Assembly: GCA_913056235.1 (NCBI GenBank)
Contig: CAJXMW010000004.1
Location: 248,001-312,000 of the forward strand
Direction: 5' to 3'
DNA length: 64,000 nt
Source: an uncultured Fodinibius sp.
GTDB lineage: Bacteria > Bacteroidota > Rhodothermia > Balneolales > Balneolaceae
The notes under the pieces: model-generated
The model's input: the letters and a program-made list of their open reading frames with translations, nothing else
Database searches by the model: none
What the model was told of the DNA's origin: nothing
Program-made: the position numbers and the translations under genes
Shown here: piece by piece, positions 1 through 6,274 of the stretch
Numbering within the stretch: position 1 is the stretch's first letter
Layout of the letters: each line of letters starts with the position of its first letter

Positions 1-549
1 GATGCCGATGGCACGCTGATGGGAAAATACCGAAAGAAGCATATTCCGGATGATCCCAGCTTTCATGAAAAATATTATTTTACGCCCGGTGAAGATAGTT
101 ACCAGGTTTTTGATACCCAATTTGGCAAAATTGGTCCACTCATCTGCTGGGACCAGTGGTATCCGGAGGCGGCGCGTATAACGGCCTTGCAGGGAGCTGA
201 ATTGCTGGTGTATCCAACAGCAATTGGCACGTTGCCGGATGAAGACGAACACCAGGGCCAGGAATTTTTAGATGCTTGGCAGACCATTCAGCGAAGCCAT
301 GCGATTGCCAACGGATGCTTTGTGGCCAGCATCAATAGAGTGGGACAGGAAGGGGGGATTTCCTTTTGGGGGCATTCTTTTGTAGCCGGGCCATTTGGAC
401 AGATGCAGGCAGAGGCGGGAACAGATGAACAGGTGCTGATCCAGGAAATTGATTTGTCAAAAATTGAAAAACAACGACAGGTCTGGCCTTTCTTTCGCGA
501 TCGCCGCATCGATACCTACGAGCCTATTTTAGAGCGCTTTATTGACTAG
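1..549 (+). CDS. aguB: N-carbamoylputrescine amidase, 3' part only
   Basis: Nitrilase-superfamily hydrolase that converts N-carbamoylputrescine to putrescine, CO2 and ammonia, the last step of the agmatine route. The reading frame is open from base 1, so the start and the first part of the protein (with the catalytic Glu) lie outside the window. Visible are the catalytic Lys region (GKYRKKHIPDDP) and the nucleophile Cys in GPLICWDQWYPEAAR, followed by the HSFVAGPFG strand of the family. The assignment to AguB rather than another carbon-nitrogen hydrolase rests on this motif set and on an agmatine deiminase gene 3.5 kb downstream on the same strand. The last 11 bases overlap the end of the convergent kinase gene. 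Confidence 0.85.
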   Translation, partial: DADGTLMGKYRKKHIPDDPSFHEKYYFTPGEDSYQVFDTQFGKIGPLICWDQWYPEAARITALQGAELLVYPTAIGTLPDEDEHQGQEFLDAWQTIQRSHAIANGCFVASINRVGQEGGISFWGHSFVAGPFGQMQAEAGTDEQVLIQEIDLSKIEKQRQVWPFFRDRRIDTYEPILERFID

Positions 550-3109
550 CCTCGTTTTGAATATACTGCGAAAGGGAATCTGCTTCAGCTTCTTGCCCGG
601 ATGCTTGCAGTAGATCTGTTAACGGTCTTAAGATTTCTTGTACCGGTTTTTCTGATAACCCATATCGCTGTTGGCGTACTTTGAGCGCTTCCCGATATAG
701 TGCTTTAGCAGTTGAAAGATCTCCTTGCTGACGTTCGACTTTTGCTTTGCTTATTTTCCAGTCAACAAGCTCGGGATGATTAGGATTAAATTTATCTTCC
801 AGAATAGCCTTACTCTTATTCAGCATTGTATTTGTTCGTGAGAATTGGTCCAAACGGACATATACTTTAGCGCCGTTATCTAAGATGTTTGCCATCTGTT
901 TTGAGTCGGGATCAACTTGTTCTTGTATTTCTCGGGCCTTTTTGAAGTGAAAAATAGCTGAGTCTAACTTGCCTTCGTAGAGATATCCACTGCTCAAGCT
1001 ACTATGGATATTTGCTAAACTTCGGTGCGTATCACCGTGAAGTTTTTTATTCATGACAAGTCCTTGCTGATAATACTTGCGTGCTTTTTGAATCTTTTGC
1101 TGATGATCATAAAGATTGGCCAGGTTTACTAAGTTATTGGCTATGCCGGGATGAGGTTTATTAGTTATTGTTTGTACCATATCCAGCGACTGCTTTTGTA
1201 CCTTGATGGCTTCTTCAAACTTATCCTGAAATCGCAAGATTGAAGCTAATACGTACAACGTTTCGGCAATGCGAACGTCAGGAGCCTCATACAGTTTCCG
1301 TTCTATATTCAAGGCCTCACGGACCAGTGAAGAAGCGTGATTGTAATTGTTTTGGATGCGCTCTACATAGGCCAAATCACGCAGAGCCTTGGAATATGAT
1401 CCGGTATTTTCTTGATCATTTGAACGGTAAAGTTGAACGGATTTTTGCAGGGCCGTTCGAGCCGAGTCATAATGGCCAAGATCTCGTTGTACAATGCCGT
1501 AAATATTATACGATCGGGCCATTTCAACACTACTTTGTTCTTTCTTCTCTAGGATAGTCAGTGCTTGTTTGAGAAGGGTTGATGCTTTCTGGGGATCGCT
1601 GAGGGAGCGAAAGGTATGCCCCATTGTATTAAGTAATTCTGCTTTTAACAGCGGGTTTTTTTCAAGTTTTTGAACTTCGGTAAAGCCTTGATTTAAGAAC
1701 TCTCTCACCGTCACCGTATCGCCCTGCGCATTACTGGGGGCACTGGCTTCAATAAGATCAGTGAGGAAAGTAGTTACGGCTTCGGCTTTTTGGGCTTCCA
1801 GCTGGGCTTTATCACGCTCCTGCGATATCTGATAGGTGTAGAAGGCGGTAAAGCCGGTCGTTAACGCTATGAGCACAACAGCCCCGGCAATGGGCCATTT
1901 ATTTCGTTTCACAAATTTTGAAAAGTGATAGCTGATGGCACCTGAACGAGCAACGACCGCTTCGGATTTTTGGGACCGGCGGATATCTTCTTTTAACTGG
2001 GCAGGCGATTCATACCGTTCTTCCGGTTCTTTGCGGAGAGCTTTCATGATGATAGCATCAAGATCGCCACTGAGTGCGTCAATCAGCTTTTTGGGAGTCG
2101 TCTTTCGTTGTTCCGCAATTTCTTGCAGCTTCCTGTTATCAAGTTGCTTCAGTCGGCGGGAGGGAGGAGTAGGAGACTGTTTGGTTACGATTTGTTCTAT
2201 TTGGGTGCGGTTTTTTTCATCCAGGTCAAAAACGGTAATCCCGGCCAGCAGTTTATACAGCAGCGCCCCCATGGCGTAGTTGTCGATAGCGGTGGTGATG
2301 GATTGGTAGGTTATTTGCTCGGGTGCGGCATAGGCTGGAGTCAGCATCTGTTGGGTTGCCTGTGTTTGAGTAGCCGTGCTATCGTCATCTTGCATCAGTT
2401 TGGCAATACCAAAGTCCAGGATTTTAACATTGTCGTTATCTGTGACCATGATATTGGCCGGCTTCAGATCGCGATGAATTACAAGGTTTTTATGAGCATG
2501 TTGCATAGCCTTGCAAATATCTTTGAATAAAGCCAGGCGCTCCTGAAGATCGAGCTTGTTGTTATCACAATAGGTATCGATAGGAGTACCGTCGATATAT
2601 TCCATTATTAGGTAGGGCAGTCCATCGTCGGTCACGCCGCCGTCATACAACTGGGCAATGTGGGGATGACTGAGTTCGGCCAGAATCTCTCGCTCAAGCT
2701 GAAAACGAGAAATGTTTTTTGGGGTGTCCATACCGCGACGCAGCACTTTCAGGGCTACCCGGTGATCAAATTCGTCGTCAGCGCGCTTCGCCAGAAACAC
2801 TGTTCCCAATCCGCCGTAACCAAGCATTTCAGTAATTTGATAGTTGCCAATATTTTGGCCAATCAGGCTGGTTCCCGGAACCTTGGGATCATCTAGAAAG
2901 TCGTCGATGAGCAGTTTCTTTTGGATTTGCTCTTCTTCCTCCAGGTAGCCTTTGGACTCTTCAATTGCCTTAAGGTATTTTGCTACCTTTTTCTTGAGTT
3001 CTGGATCCCCCTCACACTTATAGTTTATATATTCTTGTCGCTTTTGATCTTGATAATTCAATGCCTCATCGACGATCTCCTCGATTTGATTCCATTCTCT
3101 CTTGTCCAT
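539..3109 (-). CDS. Membrane-anchored Ser/Thr protein kinase with TPR repeats
   Basis: Hanks-type kinase of 856 residues. An N-terminal helical stretch of about 85 residues precedes the kinase domain. The Gly loop is GYGGLG (about 97-102), the ATP Lys is in VALK (K121), the catalytic loop is HRDLKPAN (D214), the metal motif is DFG (D232) and APE lies near 262-264, so it should be active. One transmembrane helix follows at about 405-427, then a C-terminal region of about 400 residues rich in TPR repeats (for example SYNIYGIVQRDLGHYDSA), presumably periplasmic. It lies 15 bp downstream of the ECF sigma gene and is probably co-transcribed. Sigma-kinase pairs of this type (TIGR02999/ECF43-like) are known, with the kinase phosphorylating the sigma factor. 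The substrate here is inferred. Confidence 0.93.
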   Translation of the reverse strand: MDKREWNQIEEIVDEALNYQDQKRQEYINYKCEGDPELKKKVAKYLKAIEESKGYLEEEEQIQKKLLIDDFLDDPKVPGTSLIGQNIGNYQITEMLGYGGLGTVFLAKRADDEFDHRVALKVLRRGMDTPKNISRFQLEREILAELSHPHIAQLYDGGVTDDGLPYLIMEYIDGTPIDTYCDNNKLDLQERLALFKDICKAMQHAHKNLVIHRDLKPANIMVTDNDNVKILDFGIAKLMQDDDSTATQTQATQQMLTPAYAAPEQITYQSITTAIDNYAMGALLYKLLAGITVFDLDEKNRTQIEQIVTKQSPTPPSRRLKQLDNRKLQEIAEQRKTTPKKLIDALSGDLDAIIMKALRKEPEERYESPAQLKEDIRRSQKSEAVVARSGAISYHFSKFVKRNKWPIAGAVVLIALTTGFTAFYTYQISQERDKAQLEAQKAEAVTTFLTDLIEASAPSNAQGDTVTVREFLNQGFTEVQKLEKNPLLKAELLNTMGHTFRSLSDPQKASTLLKQALTILEKKEQSSVEMARSYNIYGIVQRDLGHYDSARTALQKSVQLYRSNDQENTGSYSKALRDLAYVERIQNNYNHASSLVREALNIERKLYEAPDVRIAETLYVLASILRFQDKFEEAIKVQKQSLDMVQTITNKPHPGIANNLVNLANLYDHQQKIQKARKYYQQGLVMNKKLHGDTHRSLANIHSSLSSGYLYEGKLDSAIFHFKKAREIQEQVDPDSKQMANILDNGAKVYVRLDQFSRTNTMLNKSKAILEDKFNPNHPELVDWKISKAKVERQQGDLSTAKALYREALKVRQQRYGLSEKPVQEILRPLTDLLQASGQEAEADSLSQYIQNEASQ

Positions 3110-3124
3110 AATGTAAATTCTGTA

Positions 3125-3694
3125 TTACATTTTTAATTCTTTATATAGCCACCCTCGTGCTTTTGCCCAGTCTCGTTTTACTGTTCGTTCTGAAACATCT
3201 AAAACATCTGCGATTGCGTTCATAGTCATCTCTCCGAAAAAACGCATCTCTACAATTTTTGAAAGCCGTTCATTCAGTTCAGCCAGCTCATCTATCTTTT
3301 TATCAATTTCAGTGAATTTTTTGGCTTGTTCTTTAACCTTGAAAAGCTCATCAATATAGGTCAGCTCTTCTTTTTCTCCCCCTCTCTTTTCAGCTTGACG
3401 CTTGCGGGCATGATCAATTAAAATTTGTCGCATGCACCGCGAGGAAATAGCCATAAAGTGATTACGATTCTCAAATTCAACCTTGTCCTGCTTTATCATT
3501 TTTAAATAAACTTCGTGGACAAGTTCTGTTTTCGAGATTGTAAGGTCATCCCGTTCTTGTTGCAGCCGTGAAAAGGCCATCTTTTTGAGTTCTTCATATA
3601 TCAAAGGGAAGAGTTCGTTGTAGGCCTCTTCCGATCCTTCCTGAACTTCCAGCAAAAGCTGGGTTACCCTGGATTGCTCTTTATGGGAAGACAT
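3125..3694 (-). CDS. ECF-type RNA polymerase sigma factor (TIGR02999/ECF43-like)
   Basis: 189-residue sigma factor. Region 2 includes the segment around ELVHEVYLKM and AISSRCMRQILIDHARKR, and region 4 ends in a helix-turn-helix (MTMNAIADVLDVSERTVKRDW). Length, the LIDHARKR signature and the kinase gene directly downstream fit the ECF group that is paired with Ser/Thr kinases rather than with an anti-sigma factor. No anti-sigma gene is adjacent, which agrees with control by phosphorylation. It is divergent from the possible RNA gene and aguA. Regulon unknown. Confidence 0.93.
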   Translation of the reverse strand: MSSHKEQSRVTQLLLEVQEGSEEAYNELFPLIYEELKKMAFSRLQQERDDLTISKTELVHEVYLKMIKQDKVEFENRNHFMAISSRCMRQILIDHARKRQAEKRGGEKEELTYIDELFKVKEQAKKFTEIDKKIDELAELNERLSKIVEMRFFGEMTMNAIADVLDVSERTVKRDWAKARGWLYKELKM

Positions 3695-3824
3695 TTAATC
3701 AAGATTAAAAATTGAGCTCCTAGTTAATTTATACCCAAAAAAGCATCTATAGGGGAAAAATGAAACTTTTTGAAAATAATTTGTCACCTTTTCCATTTGG
3801 CTTACGCAATATTATAAAGTGAAG

Positions 3825-4010
3825 ATGGTAAAACATCTCAAGAGAGATAACGAGAGACGAAAACGGCATCAAGAGGAGTGACAATGTGATGTTTTCAAAT
3901 TAGGAAAGCGACTGCTGTTATGCAGTTACTTCCGGGTCTAGAGAGATGCGTCAGTTATGCGCAGTGATCCAGGGACAGTAGGTTCTTAACCTGCTGTCCT
4001 TTCTTTTTTT
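3825..4010 (+). ncRNA. Candidate structured RNA or attenuator leader upstream of aguA
   Basis: A terminator at 3973-4010 follows no plus-strand gene, so a transcript starting in the intergenic region must end there. Upstream are a long-range pairing (AAAACATC at 3830-3837 with GATGTTTT at 3888-3895), a small hairpin (ACTGC 3911-3915 with GCAGT 3922-3926) and a second one (TGCG 3947-3950 with CGCA 3960-3963). Two stretches beginning GTTATGC and ending in GGG (about 3917-3936 and 3954-3974) resemble each other. It could be a free small RNA or a leader attenuating aguA. I could not match it to a known riboswitch or to 6S RNA. Confidence 0.4.
3973..4010 (+). terminator. Rho-independent terminator
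   Basis: A 12-bp stem (GGACAGTAGGTT with AACCTGCTGTCC, one G-T wobble) with a CTT loop is followed by a T-rich tail. It lies 73 bp before the likely aguA start. Confidence 0.8.
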
Positions 4011-4082
4011 AGATAACCTTTCTTGATATACTTGTTTATTGCTTTCAATCGAGGTGATATTTCAAGACATAACTATTGCTCA

Positions 4083-5156
4083 ATGGATCCAAATAAATCA
4101 CACCCTGCAAACTTTTCGATGCCCCCCGAATGGGCCACGCACGCCGCCACACAGTTGCACTGGCCATCGAATCGAGAAACATGGCCGGGCGAACGGCTGC
4201 AGCGCGTAGAAAACGTTTACTTAGATATTATCGAGGCATTGTCGGTTCATGAACATATCCATCTGTTAGTGGAAAACGAGCGTACCCAAAAGCGTGCTTT
4301 TACATTGATACAGGATCGCAGCATTGACTTGGCCAACATCACCTTTCACCTGCAGTCCATCAACGACGTCTGGGCACGGGATTGCGGTCCTATTTTTATC
4401 CGCAACCGCGAAAATGGTGTTGAAGAGTTTGCTATTACAGACTGGGAGTACAATGCCTGGGGCGAAAAATATCCTCCTTTTGATGCAGATAATCGCTTGC
4501 CCAAATATTTTGCCTCCAAGTATAACATAAGACGATTTGAGCCTGACATGGTTCTCGAGGGGGGATCCATTGACGTCAATGGTGATGGCGTTCTGATGAC
4601 GACCGAGTCGGTATTATTGAACCAAAACCGAAATCCGGAGTTATCGAAAGAGGAGATCGAGCATCGGTTGATGGAGTACTTGGGCGTTGAAAAGATTATC
4701 TGGCTTAAGGAGGGATTAGCTGGCGACGACACCGATGGACATATTGATGATATTGCTCGTTTCTTGAATAAAGGTACCATTTTGGCCATGGTTTCTGACG
4801 ATCCCGAGGATGTGAACTACGAGACCCTGAATCAGAACCTAGACCTATTGCTGGAGGCCACCGACCAGCACGGCCAATCATTCACCATAGAACCTTTGCC
4901 TGTACCAGAAACCAAAATCGAGGGAACTACCGTGGATGGGTCGGAATATGTGCCGGCTAGCTATGCCAATTTTTATGTGGCAAATGGCGTGGTGCTTGTT
5001 CCGCTGTATGATGAGCGTTTCGATGATAGAGCCCTGCACCTGTTTGAGCAATATTATCCCGACAGAGAGGTGGTCGGCATTCCTTGTGCCGATCTTGTTT
5101 GGGGACAGGGATCAATACATTGCATAACCCAGCAGTTATATAGTATCGAGGAATAG
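4083..5156 (+). CDS. aguA: Agmatine deiminase
   Basis: Converts agmatine to N-carbamoylputrescine plus ammonia, the step before AguB. It belongs to the peptidyl-arginine-deiminase (PAD_porph) family: an early MPPEWATH segment, ARDCGPIF, GGSIDVNGDG, a GDDTDGHIDD segment holding catalytic Asp/His residues, and the nucleophile Cys in WGQGSIHCITQQ near the C-terminus. I chose the ATG at 4083 (357 residues, usual for the family) because the longer frame from 4023 adds 20 residues unlike the family. No signal peptide, so cytoplasmic. Together with AguB it gives a complete agmatine-to-putrescine branch. Confidence 0.93.
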   Translation: MDPNKSHPANFSMPPEWATHAATQLHWPSNRETWPGERLQRVENVYLDIIEALSVHEHIHLLVENERTQKRAFTLIQDRSIDLANITFHLQSINDVWARDCGPIFIRNRENGVEEFAITDWEYNAWGEKYPPFDADNRLPKYFASKYNIRRFEPDMVLEGGSIDVNGDGVLMTTESVLLNQNRNPELSKEEIEHRLMEYLGVEKIIWLKEGLAGDDTDGHIDDIARFLNKGTILAMVSDDPEDVNYETLNQNLDLLLEATDQHGQSFTIEPLPVPETKIEGTTVDGSEYVPASYANFYVANGVVLVPLYDERFDDRALHLFEQYYPDREVVGIPCADLVWGQGSIHCITQQLYSIEE

Positions 5157-5196: not shown

Positions 5197-5719
5197 ATGC
5201 GGATTATTATTTTGGGATTCTTATTTATGGGATGCACGGCTAATCAATCGATAAACCCGACTAAGCACATCGAAGCGATCATCAGCTCTACCGAAATTTT
5301 GAGCTGGCCTATGACAGCCTGGATGTAGTTATGGTTGGGGATTTATATGCGCAGGATGCTCACTATCTGTTGCCGAATCCCCAGGCGCCGGTGCTGGAAG
5401 GGAAGGAGCGAATCAAAAAGTCGTTCGCTGGATTTATGCATCGCATCAAAGAAAATAGGCGAAATGTCGATATCTCCTTTGCATTGTTCATCGACAGATT
5501 ACGGATAGCCTTTCCTATGACGTTGGTTATTATCGCACGTGTTCCAAATCGGATTCGGTGGCTGCTTTCCCGGATGGGGGCAGTGTGGGTAAGTTCGTGA
5601 CGGATATAGGTTTGCAACCAGATGGGAAGTGGAGGTTCCTGGTCGATGGTTACAGCCCCGCGCCCAACGATGCTTTTAGCAGTGCCGATCGTTCGGGATT
5701 TAATCCCGCCTCAGAGTAG
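5197..5719 (+). pseudogene. Frameshifted small secreted protein (SnoaL/DUF4440-like)
   Basis: The start at 5197 gives a signal peptide with a lipobox-like LFMGC and then stops after about 43 codons. A shift near 5295-5300 opens a second frame (FELAYDSLDVVMVGDLYAQDA), and another near 5480-5495 opens a third (QITDSLSYDVGYYRTC) that runs to a TAG at 5717-5719. Joined, the three pieces read as one protein of about 170 residues, with the early AQDAHYLLP and late PDGKWRFLVDGYSP segments seen in SnoaL-like/DUF4440 ketosteroid-isomerase-fold proteins. Two separate shifts argue for real decay, but sequencing error is possible. The fold assignment is by eye. Confidence 0.7.
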
Positions 5720-5725
5720 ATCAAT

Positions 5726-6274
5726 CTATTGCAGGTTAAAATAGCTAGCTTGCTCTCGGGGAATGATCACTTCAGGGTTACGTTCCTTGATGAATCGCAT
5801 GATATCGGCAATGTCATCAACTTTTAAGGTGATCGCGGTTGATTCAAGTCCCAGTAGCTTCTTAAAGTTCGGATTAGTTCGTGTTTTATATAGAAGATGA
5901 TAGTTCGTGGCAAAATCGAACAAAGCCTCATCGGAAGAACGGGCATTGTGAGGGGCAAATTTAAGCTCTTCAATATCGGCAACAGGAATCTGCATTGTGT
6001 CGGTTTTTACTTGACCTTTTTTGATGTCAATCATCAACAGGTCGTTTTCGAAGTATAGAATAAGATGGTAGAGTGGTTCCGAAAGCTTGATGATTCCTGT
6101 AAAACTGATGACAAATAAACCGAGCGCCAATAGCTGATCCAGCTTAAAAGGATCAAAGCTCATAGAAACGAAAGAGCCGGCCAGCAGGTAGGTGCCTCCG
6201 GCCGTGCATACGAGGATTGTTAATCCCCAAAACAGGTGGGTACTTTTTTCAAAGACGTGCAGTTCATCATGCAT
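5726..6274 (-). CDS. Hypothetical membrane protein with two N-terminal helices
   Basis: 182 residues. Two hydrophobic segments lie near residues 13-34 and 46-64, followed by a soluble C-terminal part of about 110 residues with mixed charge. I do not recognise a family. The layout (paired helices, then a small globular domain) resembles PH-like membrane proteins of unknown role. It is convergent with the pseudogene and divergent from gatB. Confidence 0.75.
   Translation of the reverse strand: MHDELHVFEKSTHLFWGLTILVCTAGGTYLLAGSFVSMSFDPFKLDQLLALGLFVISFTGIIKLSEPLYHLILYFENDLLMIDIKKGQVKTDTMQIPVADIEELKFAPHNARSSDEALFDFATNYHLLYKTRTNPNFKKLLGLESTAITLKVDDIADIMRFIKERNPEVIIPREQASYFNLQ

What the first reader, a model, noticed from the sequence alone, without database searches (positions are those of the whole stretch)
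3825..4010. Orphan terminator and structured region upstream of aguA
A strong terminator with no preceding gene marks the end of some transcript. The upstream 150 bases contain a long-range pairing, two hairpins and two similar stretches (about 3917-3936, 3954-3974). It may be an attenuator controlling agmatine use or a new small RNA.
Basis: seen in the sequence. Interest (0 to 1): 0.5.

Follow-up and report, generated by a model that had tools for sequence, protein, structure and literature searches.

The report
Sigma-factor-driven small RNA beside aguA
The "orphan terminator" ends a roughly 190-base structured RNA that looks as if it is switched on by the alternative sigma factor encoded next to it, so it is most likely a new small regulatory RNA and not a switch for the neighbouring agmatine gene.

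Summary
The terminator and structured region are real. A covariance model built without the window finds it (E 1.7e-4), and six base pairs show two-sided changes. Upstream, at 3780-3808, is TTTGTCAC-N14-TTACGCA. It fits a promoter class that I found around TIGR02999 ECF sigma genes in eight other genomes, mostly before lipoprotein genes; the fit is better than anything in 3.84 Mb of shuffled sequence. Here the site is divergent to this genome's only TIGR02999 sigma gene, which is followed by a Ser/Thr kinase gene, and no second convincing site was found in the genome. The three RNA-linked sigma proteins form one supported clade. In most relatives aguB directly precedes aguA; here the sigma+RNA cassette separates them. 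I found no leader peptide conserved in frame, no shared antiterminator and no Rfam match. Best reading: an ECF-dependent, terminator-ended small RNA, output of a kinase/ECF module, comparable to sigmaE sRNAs (MicA/RybB, FoxI/FoxJ). Only three sequences are known, targets are unknown, and nothing has been shown in cells. The attenuator idea is weak but not excluded.

The parts
3780..3808 (+). ECF-type promoter: TTTGTCAC (3780-3787), 14 nt, TTACGCA (3802-3808)
   Evidence: Same two blocks and spacing in G004 and G010; best site in the 64 kb for a matrix trained on other ECF loci only, 19.8 bits, next 7.3, null maximum 16.2 in 3.84 Mb.
3817..4010 (+). small RNA gene, about 190 nt; 5' end inferred (somewhere in 3815-3820), 3' end at the T-run
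   Evidence: Model R1 (window not included) matches 3848-4006 at E 1.7e-4; covariation. No transcript data.
3821..3840 (+). 5' hairpin SL0 (GATG/CATC); a hairpin in a similar place by eye in G004 and G010
   Evidence: Fold of the window; relatives by eye; not counted in the covariation test.
3866..3892 (+). SL1: GCATCA paired with TGATGT, GGAG in the loop
   Evidence: 100% of cells paired in three sequences, one-sided changes only; in the window alone these pairs have probability 0.5-0.6.
3903..3933 (+). SL2: long hairpin
   Evidence: Fold. The window's SL2 is not aligned to the relatives' SL2 in A4, so its counts rest on two rows, with one two-sided change and one broken cell.
3947..3963 (+). 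SL3: small hairpin after the second GAGAG motif
   Evidence: Three pairs with two-sided changes.
3852..3859 (+). unpaired GAGAGACG motif, first copy
   Evidence: GAGAGGCG in G004 and G010.
3941..3948 (+). unpaired GAGAGATG motif, second copy
   Evidence: GAGAGGCG in G004, GAGAGATG in G010.
3971..4009 (+). SL4, intrinsic terminator and T-run
   Evidence: 12 aligned pairs, two with two-sided changes.
3125..3694 (-). TIGR02999 ECF sigma factor, divergent to the RNA
   Evidence: 197.9 bits against a cut-off of 126.15; clade with the G004 and G010 proteins, support 97/96.
539..3109 (-). Ser/Thr protein kinase with TPR repeats, behind the ECF gene
   Evidence: Pkinase and TPR_12. Not next to the ECF gene in G004 and G010.
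4083..5156 (+). aguA, agmatine deiminase: neighbour, probably not part of the RNA unit
   Evidence: PAD_porph 387 bits; 289.7 bits for TIGR03380, under its cut-off of 381.8.

Best explanation
3817-4010 is a small noncoding RNA gene. The TIGR02999 ECF sigma factor made by the divergent gene recognises TTTGTCAC-N14-TTACGCA and transcribes about 190 nt that fold into four or five hairpins and stop at the intrinsic terminator. The TPR kinase encoded behind the sigma gene probably activates the sigma factor by phosphorylating a Thr in region 2.2, as described for group ECF43. The RNA then most likely acts in trans by base pairing through its unpaired GAGAG motifs and the SL1 loop, plausibly on surface-protein mRNAs. 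Shown by computation: promoter match, conserved structure in three species, descent with the ECF gene. Inferred: transcription, sigma dependence, kinase control. Speculative: targets.
For: Model R1, built without the window, finds 3848-4006 at E 1.7e-4. Six pairs with two-sided changes against a shuffled mean of 2.5; slid structures collapse. A matrix grown only from promoters at other ECF loci puts 3780 first in the window, 19.8 bits against a null maximum of 16.2, and scores G010's site 26.3. Of 30 such sites, 23 precede an ORF within 300 nt, 19 with a lipobox-like start. A consensus pattern of this class gives 19 sites in 12 genus genomes with no control hit; 16 are in the loci it came from, and of the other three, two lie 3.6 and 10.6 kb from another TIGR02999 gene. 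This genome has one TIGR02999 gene over the cut-off, the window's. The three RNA-linked ECF proteins form a clade, 97/96. Thr at the third DAED position in 32 of 32 matched ECFs.
Against: Only three sequences, from one genus; 10 other genomes of the order gave only weak model hits. G004's promoter scores 13.3, under the null maximum. The loose promoter pattern (up to 3 mismatches) has as many reversed-control hits (10, two of them in this genome) as real ones (10); only the exact hits carry weight. The fold of the 5' part is not unusual in window and G010. The ECF proteins of G004 and G010 are fast-evolving and have no kinase gene directly behind them. No expression data, no target.
Confidence: 0.66

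Rival explanations
1. The RNA is the 5' leader of aguA: the ECF promoter drives aguA, and a regulated terminator (attenuator or undescribed riboswitch) decides on read-through, for example in response to arginine or agmatine.
For: aguA starts 75-110 nt after the terminator in all three genomes. Short K/R-rich reading frames start near the RNA's 5' end in all three. In G010 the terminator's 5' arm can pair with upstream sequence at moderate probability (0.45).
Against: The frames are broken by indels between G004 and G010. With the terminator's 3' arm blocked, SL2 stays intact in window and G004. 19 of 30 aguA loci follow aguB directly, and the RNA was found in 3 of 128 genomes of the order. 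No Rfam match.
Confidence: 0.15
2. Remnant leader: the ECF promoter once drove a lipoprotein gene that was lost, and the transcript is what is left, with no function of its own.
For: Sites of this promoter class mostly precede lipoprotein genes, and no such gene follows here.
Against: Compensated changes in hairpins and near-identical GAGAG and terminator segments in G004 and G010 suggest selection; the lipoprotein leaders are short, often about 35 nt, unlike a 190-nt structured stretch.
Confidence: 0.1
3. A chance terminator and hairpins in an AT-rich intergenic region.
For: Without the terminator the window's fold is ordinary; blastn finds no relative in 97 genomes.
Against: Cross-species model hit, covariation and promoter match.
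Confidence: 0.04

Closest known systems
RpoE (sigmaE)-dependent sRNAs MicA, RybB, MicL of E. coli (PMC8103513, passages)
   Same: Small terminator-ended RNA from an ECF-type promoter; would be the noncoding arm of an ECF response.
   Different: No sequence relation is claimed and none was tested. The sigma factor here is kinase-linked TIGR02999, divergent to the RNA, and no Hfq was found in 12 genus genomes. Targets unknown.
FoxI and FoxJ, sigmaE-dependent sRNAs of Fusobacterium nucleatum (PMC11005410, passages)
   Same: ECF-driven sRNAs in a bacterium said to lack Hfq; they act on envelope-associated proteins.
   Different: Different phylum; F. nucleatum targets were found by experiment, here none is known.
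ECF43 sigma factors EcfP/PknT and EcfK/PknS (PMC8999054 and PMC13147305, passages)
   Same: ECF gene next to a Ser/Thr kinase gene; Thr in the region that is DAED in ordinary ECFs.
   Different: Membership in ECF43 was not tested; the window's SKTE keeps a negative charge. In the passages seen the outputs are protein genes (T6SS, polymyxin resistance), not an sRNA.
Leader-peptide attenuators of amino-acid genes (recalled)
   Same: Hairpins and a terminator ahead of a metabolic gene; short K/R-rich frames.
   Different: No leader peptide conserved in frame, no shared antiterminator.

Membership tests
ECF-sigma-dependent small RNA | promoter of an ECF sigma factor directly upstream | tested here: met
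   19.8 bits against a null maximum of 16.2 in 3.84 Mb; G010 26.3; G004 only 13.3.
ECF-sigma-dependent small RNA | discrete noncoding transcript with its own terminator | tested here: inconclusive
   Terminator present; short frames not conserved; transcript not observed.
ECF-sigma-dependent small RNA | expression depends on the sigma factor | not testable with these tools
   Needs RNA-seq in an ECF mutant.
ECF-sigma-dependent small RNA | pairs with target mRNAs | not tested
   The whole genome was not available as a file; no target prediction was run.
ECF-sigma-dependent small RNA | Hfq in the host (usual, not required: F. nucleatum is said to lack it) | tested here: not met
   0 of 12 genus genomes; controls rang in E. 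coli and four others.
Transcription attenuator of aguA | leader peptide conserved in frame | tested here: not met
   Indels between G004 and G010; frames of different length and sequence.
Transcription attenuator of aguA | mutually exclusive antiterminator | tested here: not met
   No pairing shared by the three when the terminator is blocked; only G010 shows an alternative.
Transcription attenuator of aguA | travels with aguA across relatives | tested here: not met
   aguA in 46 of 58 genomes, the RNA in 3 of 128; within the genus in 3 of the 4 genomes with aguA.
Any described Rfam family or riboswitch | reaches a family's gathering score | tested here: not met
   None in 64 kb; at E up to 10 two unrelated weak hits.
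Kinase-controlled ECF (ECF43-like mechanism) | Ser/Thr kinase gene next to the ECF gene | tested here: met
   Window. Not directly next to the RNA-linked ECF genes of G004 and G010.
Kinase-controlled ECF (ECF43-like mechanism) | phosphorylatable Thr in the DAED region | tested here: met
   SKTE; Thr at the third position in 32 of 32 matched of 33 distinct ECFs. Phosphorylation not testable.
CsrA-titrating RNA (CsrB/RsmY type) | host encodes CsrA | tested here: not met
   0 of 12 genus genomes.

The most novel reading that the evidence does not exclude
A self-contained module of kinase, ECF sigma factor and small RNA in which the RNA is the sigma factor's main or only output: a surface-protein sigma switch whose lipoprotein target was replaced by a regulatory RNA, working without Hfq, in a genus for which my searches found no described small RNA.
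Probability: 0.3. Interest if true: 0.7.

Novelty: new variant of a known kind. Interest (0 to 1): 0.55.

Why it matters
The ECF-driven sRNAs that I know of hang on RpoE-type sigma factors; here the sigma factor belongs to a kinase-linked family, TIGR02999, for which a search of the held library by that name found no paper. The work also yields a predicted promoter class for this family in the genus (core TTTGTCC, 15 nt, TTACGCAT, 2 nt, TACTATG), sharp enough to list candidate targets: collagen-like, beta-propeller and other lipoproteins, with TonB-dependent receptor genes beside some sites. And it leaves a small testable system in this genome: one TIGR02999 sigma factor, one convincing promoter, one RNA.

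Tried and rejected
Blastn with the window RNA in 97 genomes found only itself. Rfam gave nothing. Weak model hits elsewhere: R1 gave G041 (terminator part only, not inspected further) and G017 (inside a gene). R2 in 12 genus genomes gave G005 (a terminator behind a thioredoxin-like gene), G007, G002, G008 and G001; three of these five loci (L127, L128, L130) were inspected. R2 in 128 genomes of the order gave 10 further genomes at E 4.7e-4 to 0.1; six loci (L143-L147, L149) were inspected, no ECF or kinase gene lies in them and the four alignments printed rest mainly on the terminator; the rest were not looked at. All are taken as chance.

A pattern scan of 84,980 species gave 14 stretches; model R1 kept only G004's. 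The short promoter pattern at up to 1 mismatch in 92 family genomes gave 33 sites, not far above its reversed control; of its 7 exact sites two, in G022, have no ECF gene within 1.5 kb. The motif is not at every TIGR02999 gene: with 1.5-kb flanks, only the window's own locus and L066 of the 30 loci L052-L081 show it with 14-nt spacing at up to 2 mismatches. ECFs whose loci bear the motif are not one clade (5 changes; 38 of 500 shuffles as low). The matrix was partly circular, because its sites had been picked with a matrix that included the RNA promoters; one search repeats it without them.

CsrA sponge: no CsrA. Target prediction was not attempted. The G010 ECF was not matched by the regex; its SNTDLV is read by eye.

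Full report
WHAT IS THERE. The window (45.5% GC) lies in a genome of the same genus as G004. A contig of G004 has the length (420963) of a Fodinibius halophilus 2W32 contig, and that contig carries the same RNA. From 1 to 5156 the window holds the end of an aguB-like gene (19-549, +; named by its place and from memory, not by a family search), a Ser/Thr kinase with TPR repeats (539-3109, -), an ECF sigma factor of TIGR02999 (3125-3694, -), the reported region, and aguA (4083-5156, +). The terminator is at 3971-4001 with a T-run. The region folds better than 200 of 200 shuffles, z -3.63, but most of that is the terminator: the 5' part alone has z -0.78 in the window, -1.07 in G010 and -4.51 in G004.

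HOMOLOGUES. Plain DNA search found no relative in 97 genomes. Reading upstream of aguA in 30 loci showed two same-genus genomes, G010 and G004, with the same order: ECF gene on the minus strand, a conserved block, a structured stretch with a terminator, then aguA. A covariance model from these two (R1) finds the window region at E 1.7e-4 in 84 kb, a confirmation independent of the window. On the three-row alignment 98.9% of cells pair (slid controls 28-54%), and six pairs have changes on both sides against a shuffled mean of 2.5. That alignment was fitted to the model's structure, and its SL2 rests on two rows. With the three-row model R2 the RNA is found in 3 of 128 genomes of the order (E 1.4e-18 or better); 10 more genomes have hits at E 4.7e-4 to 0.1, and the six loci of these that I inspected look like chance terminators.

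PROMOTER. In all three genomes the RNA is preceded by TTTGTCAC-N14-TTACGCA. A long form of it, searched at up to 3 mismatches in 12 genus genomes, matches exactly only at these three places. At that looseness the reversed control scores as often (10 against 10 hits), so only the exact hits count, but the search also turned up three copies in G009, each before a lipoprotein gene 5-9 kb from a TIGR02999 ECF/kinase pair. I fetched eight stretches of 16-20 kb around related ECF genes in seven other genomes. Starting from the three G009 sites only, an iterated matrix reached 30 sites in 9 loci of 8 genomes. A consensus of 26 such sites is TTTGTCCCCATTTCGCTTGCCGTTACGCATGTTACT. 23 of the 30 have an ORF of 80 codons or more within 300 nt, 22 with a signal-like and 19 with a lipobox-like start; 7 have none. 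With the matrix, which has seen no RNA promoter, 3780 is the best site in the 64-kb window: 19.8 bits, next 7.3, null maximum 16.2 in 3.84 Mb of shuffled window. G010's site scores 26.3; G004's only 13.3, the best in its 10 kb but under the null maximum. A consensus pattern at up to 3 mismatches gave 19 sites in 7 of 12 genus genomes and no control hit; 16 of them are in the loci the pattern came from; of the other three, two (G004) lie 3.6 and 10.6 kb from another TIGR02999 gene and one is at a contig end. G000 has no hit of this pattern and one exact hit of the other, the RNA's. G000 has a single TIGR02999 gene over the cut-off, the one in the window. A matrix scan of the whole genome was not possible, so further sites are not ruled out.

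UNIT. The ECF proteins next to the RNA in window, G004 and G010 form one clade (97/96), although the two relatives' share a long branch. aguB ends within 300 nt of aguA in 19 of 30 loci; in G010 and G004 it is about 980 nt away with ECF gene and RNA between, and in the window farther, with the kinase gene as well. The cassette thus looks inserted into the agu operon, and closeness to aguA is more likely a matter of place than of function.

MECHANISM. ECF43 sigma factors are described as activated by phosphorylation of a Thr in the region that is DAED in other ECFs; for EcfK further sites seem to matter (PMC8999054 and PMC13147305, passages). The window ECF has SKTE there, and 32 of 32 genus ECFs matched by my regex (of 33 distinct) have Thr at the third position. 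I infer: signal, kinase, phosphorylated sigma factor, RNA. What the RNA does next is open. A GAGAG motif occurs twice unpaired and GGAG lies in or near the SL1 loop; base pairing with mRNAs is the usual mode. Other outputs of this promoter class are mostly lipoproteins, and a TonB-dependent receptor gene lies beside the G009 sites. RpoE sRNAs and FoxI/FoxJ act on envelope proteins (PMC8103513 and PMC11005410, passages). Surface proteins are therefore my first guess for targets. No Hfq or CsrA match was found in 12 genus genomes.

ATTENUATOR. Against it: indels break the frame between G004 and G010; with the terminator's 3' arm blocked, SL2 stays intact in window and G004; the RNA is absent from most genomes with aguA. 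Read-through in cells could still exist.

IN PRINT. Searches for small RNA with Fodinibius (0 papers), TIGR02999 (0), Balneola with RNA terms (none of the 12 papers listed holds Balneola) and ECF sigma with threonine kinase, small RNA and divergently transcribed (25 papers, 12 listed, none with such a system in title or abstract start) found nothing on this RNA or promoter. The library holds open-licence papers only.

VERDICT. Observation partly confirmed; the small-RNA reading is supported, the attenuator reading is not. A new RNA family of a known kind (ECF-dependent sRNA) in an unusual, kinase-linked setting.

Noticed in passing
L048 (G009:C4:68000-84000), L135-L140: TIGR02999 ECF/kinase loci of the genus are flanked by several lipoprotein genes (collagen-like, WD40-like propeller), most preceded by its own copy of TTTGTCC-N15-TTACGCAT-N2-TACTATG: a predicted promoter for this sigma family.
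   Followed up: yes
L048 about 5628-6183 (-); similar minus/plus pairs in L135 (7928), L136 (1416), L138 (13353): The same promoter class also occurs as close divergent pairs; in G009 one of the pair points at a TonB-dependent receptor gene about 550 nt away, so that gene may have a long leader.
   Followed up: no
L049 5092-5664 and L050 4627-5199: The RNA-linked ECF proteins of G004 and G010 are on long branches and have no kinase gene directly behind them, while another TIGR02999 ECF gene beside a lipoprotein gene lies about 3 kb away.
   Followed up: partly
window 5197-5719: Behind aguA are short overlapping frames in different reading frames that by eye look like one broken lipoprotein or DUF4440-like gene; not searched.
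   Followed up: no
L115 (G022:C147) 1501: An exact TTTGTCAC-N14-TTACGCA upstream of what by eye looks like a DUF4440-like fragment, without an ECF gene within 1.5 kb.
   Followed up: partly
window 4011-4050; L005 and L006 spacers before aguA: By eye a TATAYTWG box 12-16 nt after the terminator's T-run in all three genomes, a possible promoter for aguA itself; not tested.
   Followed up: no
genomes G000-G011: TIGR02999 gene number over the cut-off varies from one (G000, G009) to nine (G004) in the genus; 36 in 12 genomes.
   Followed up: no
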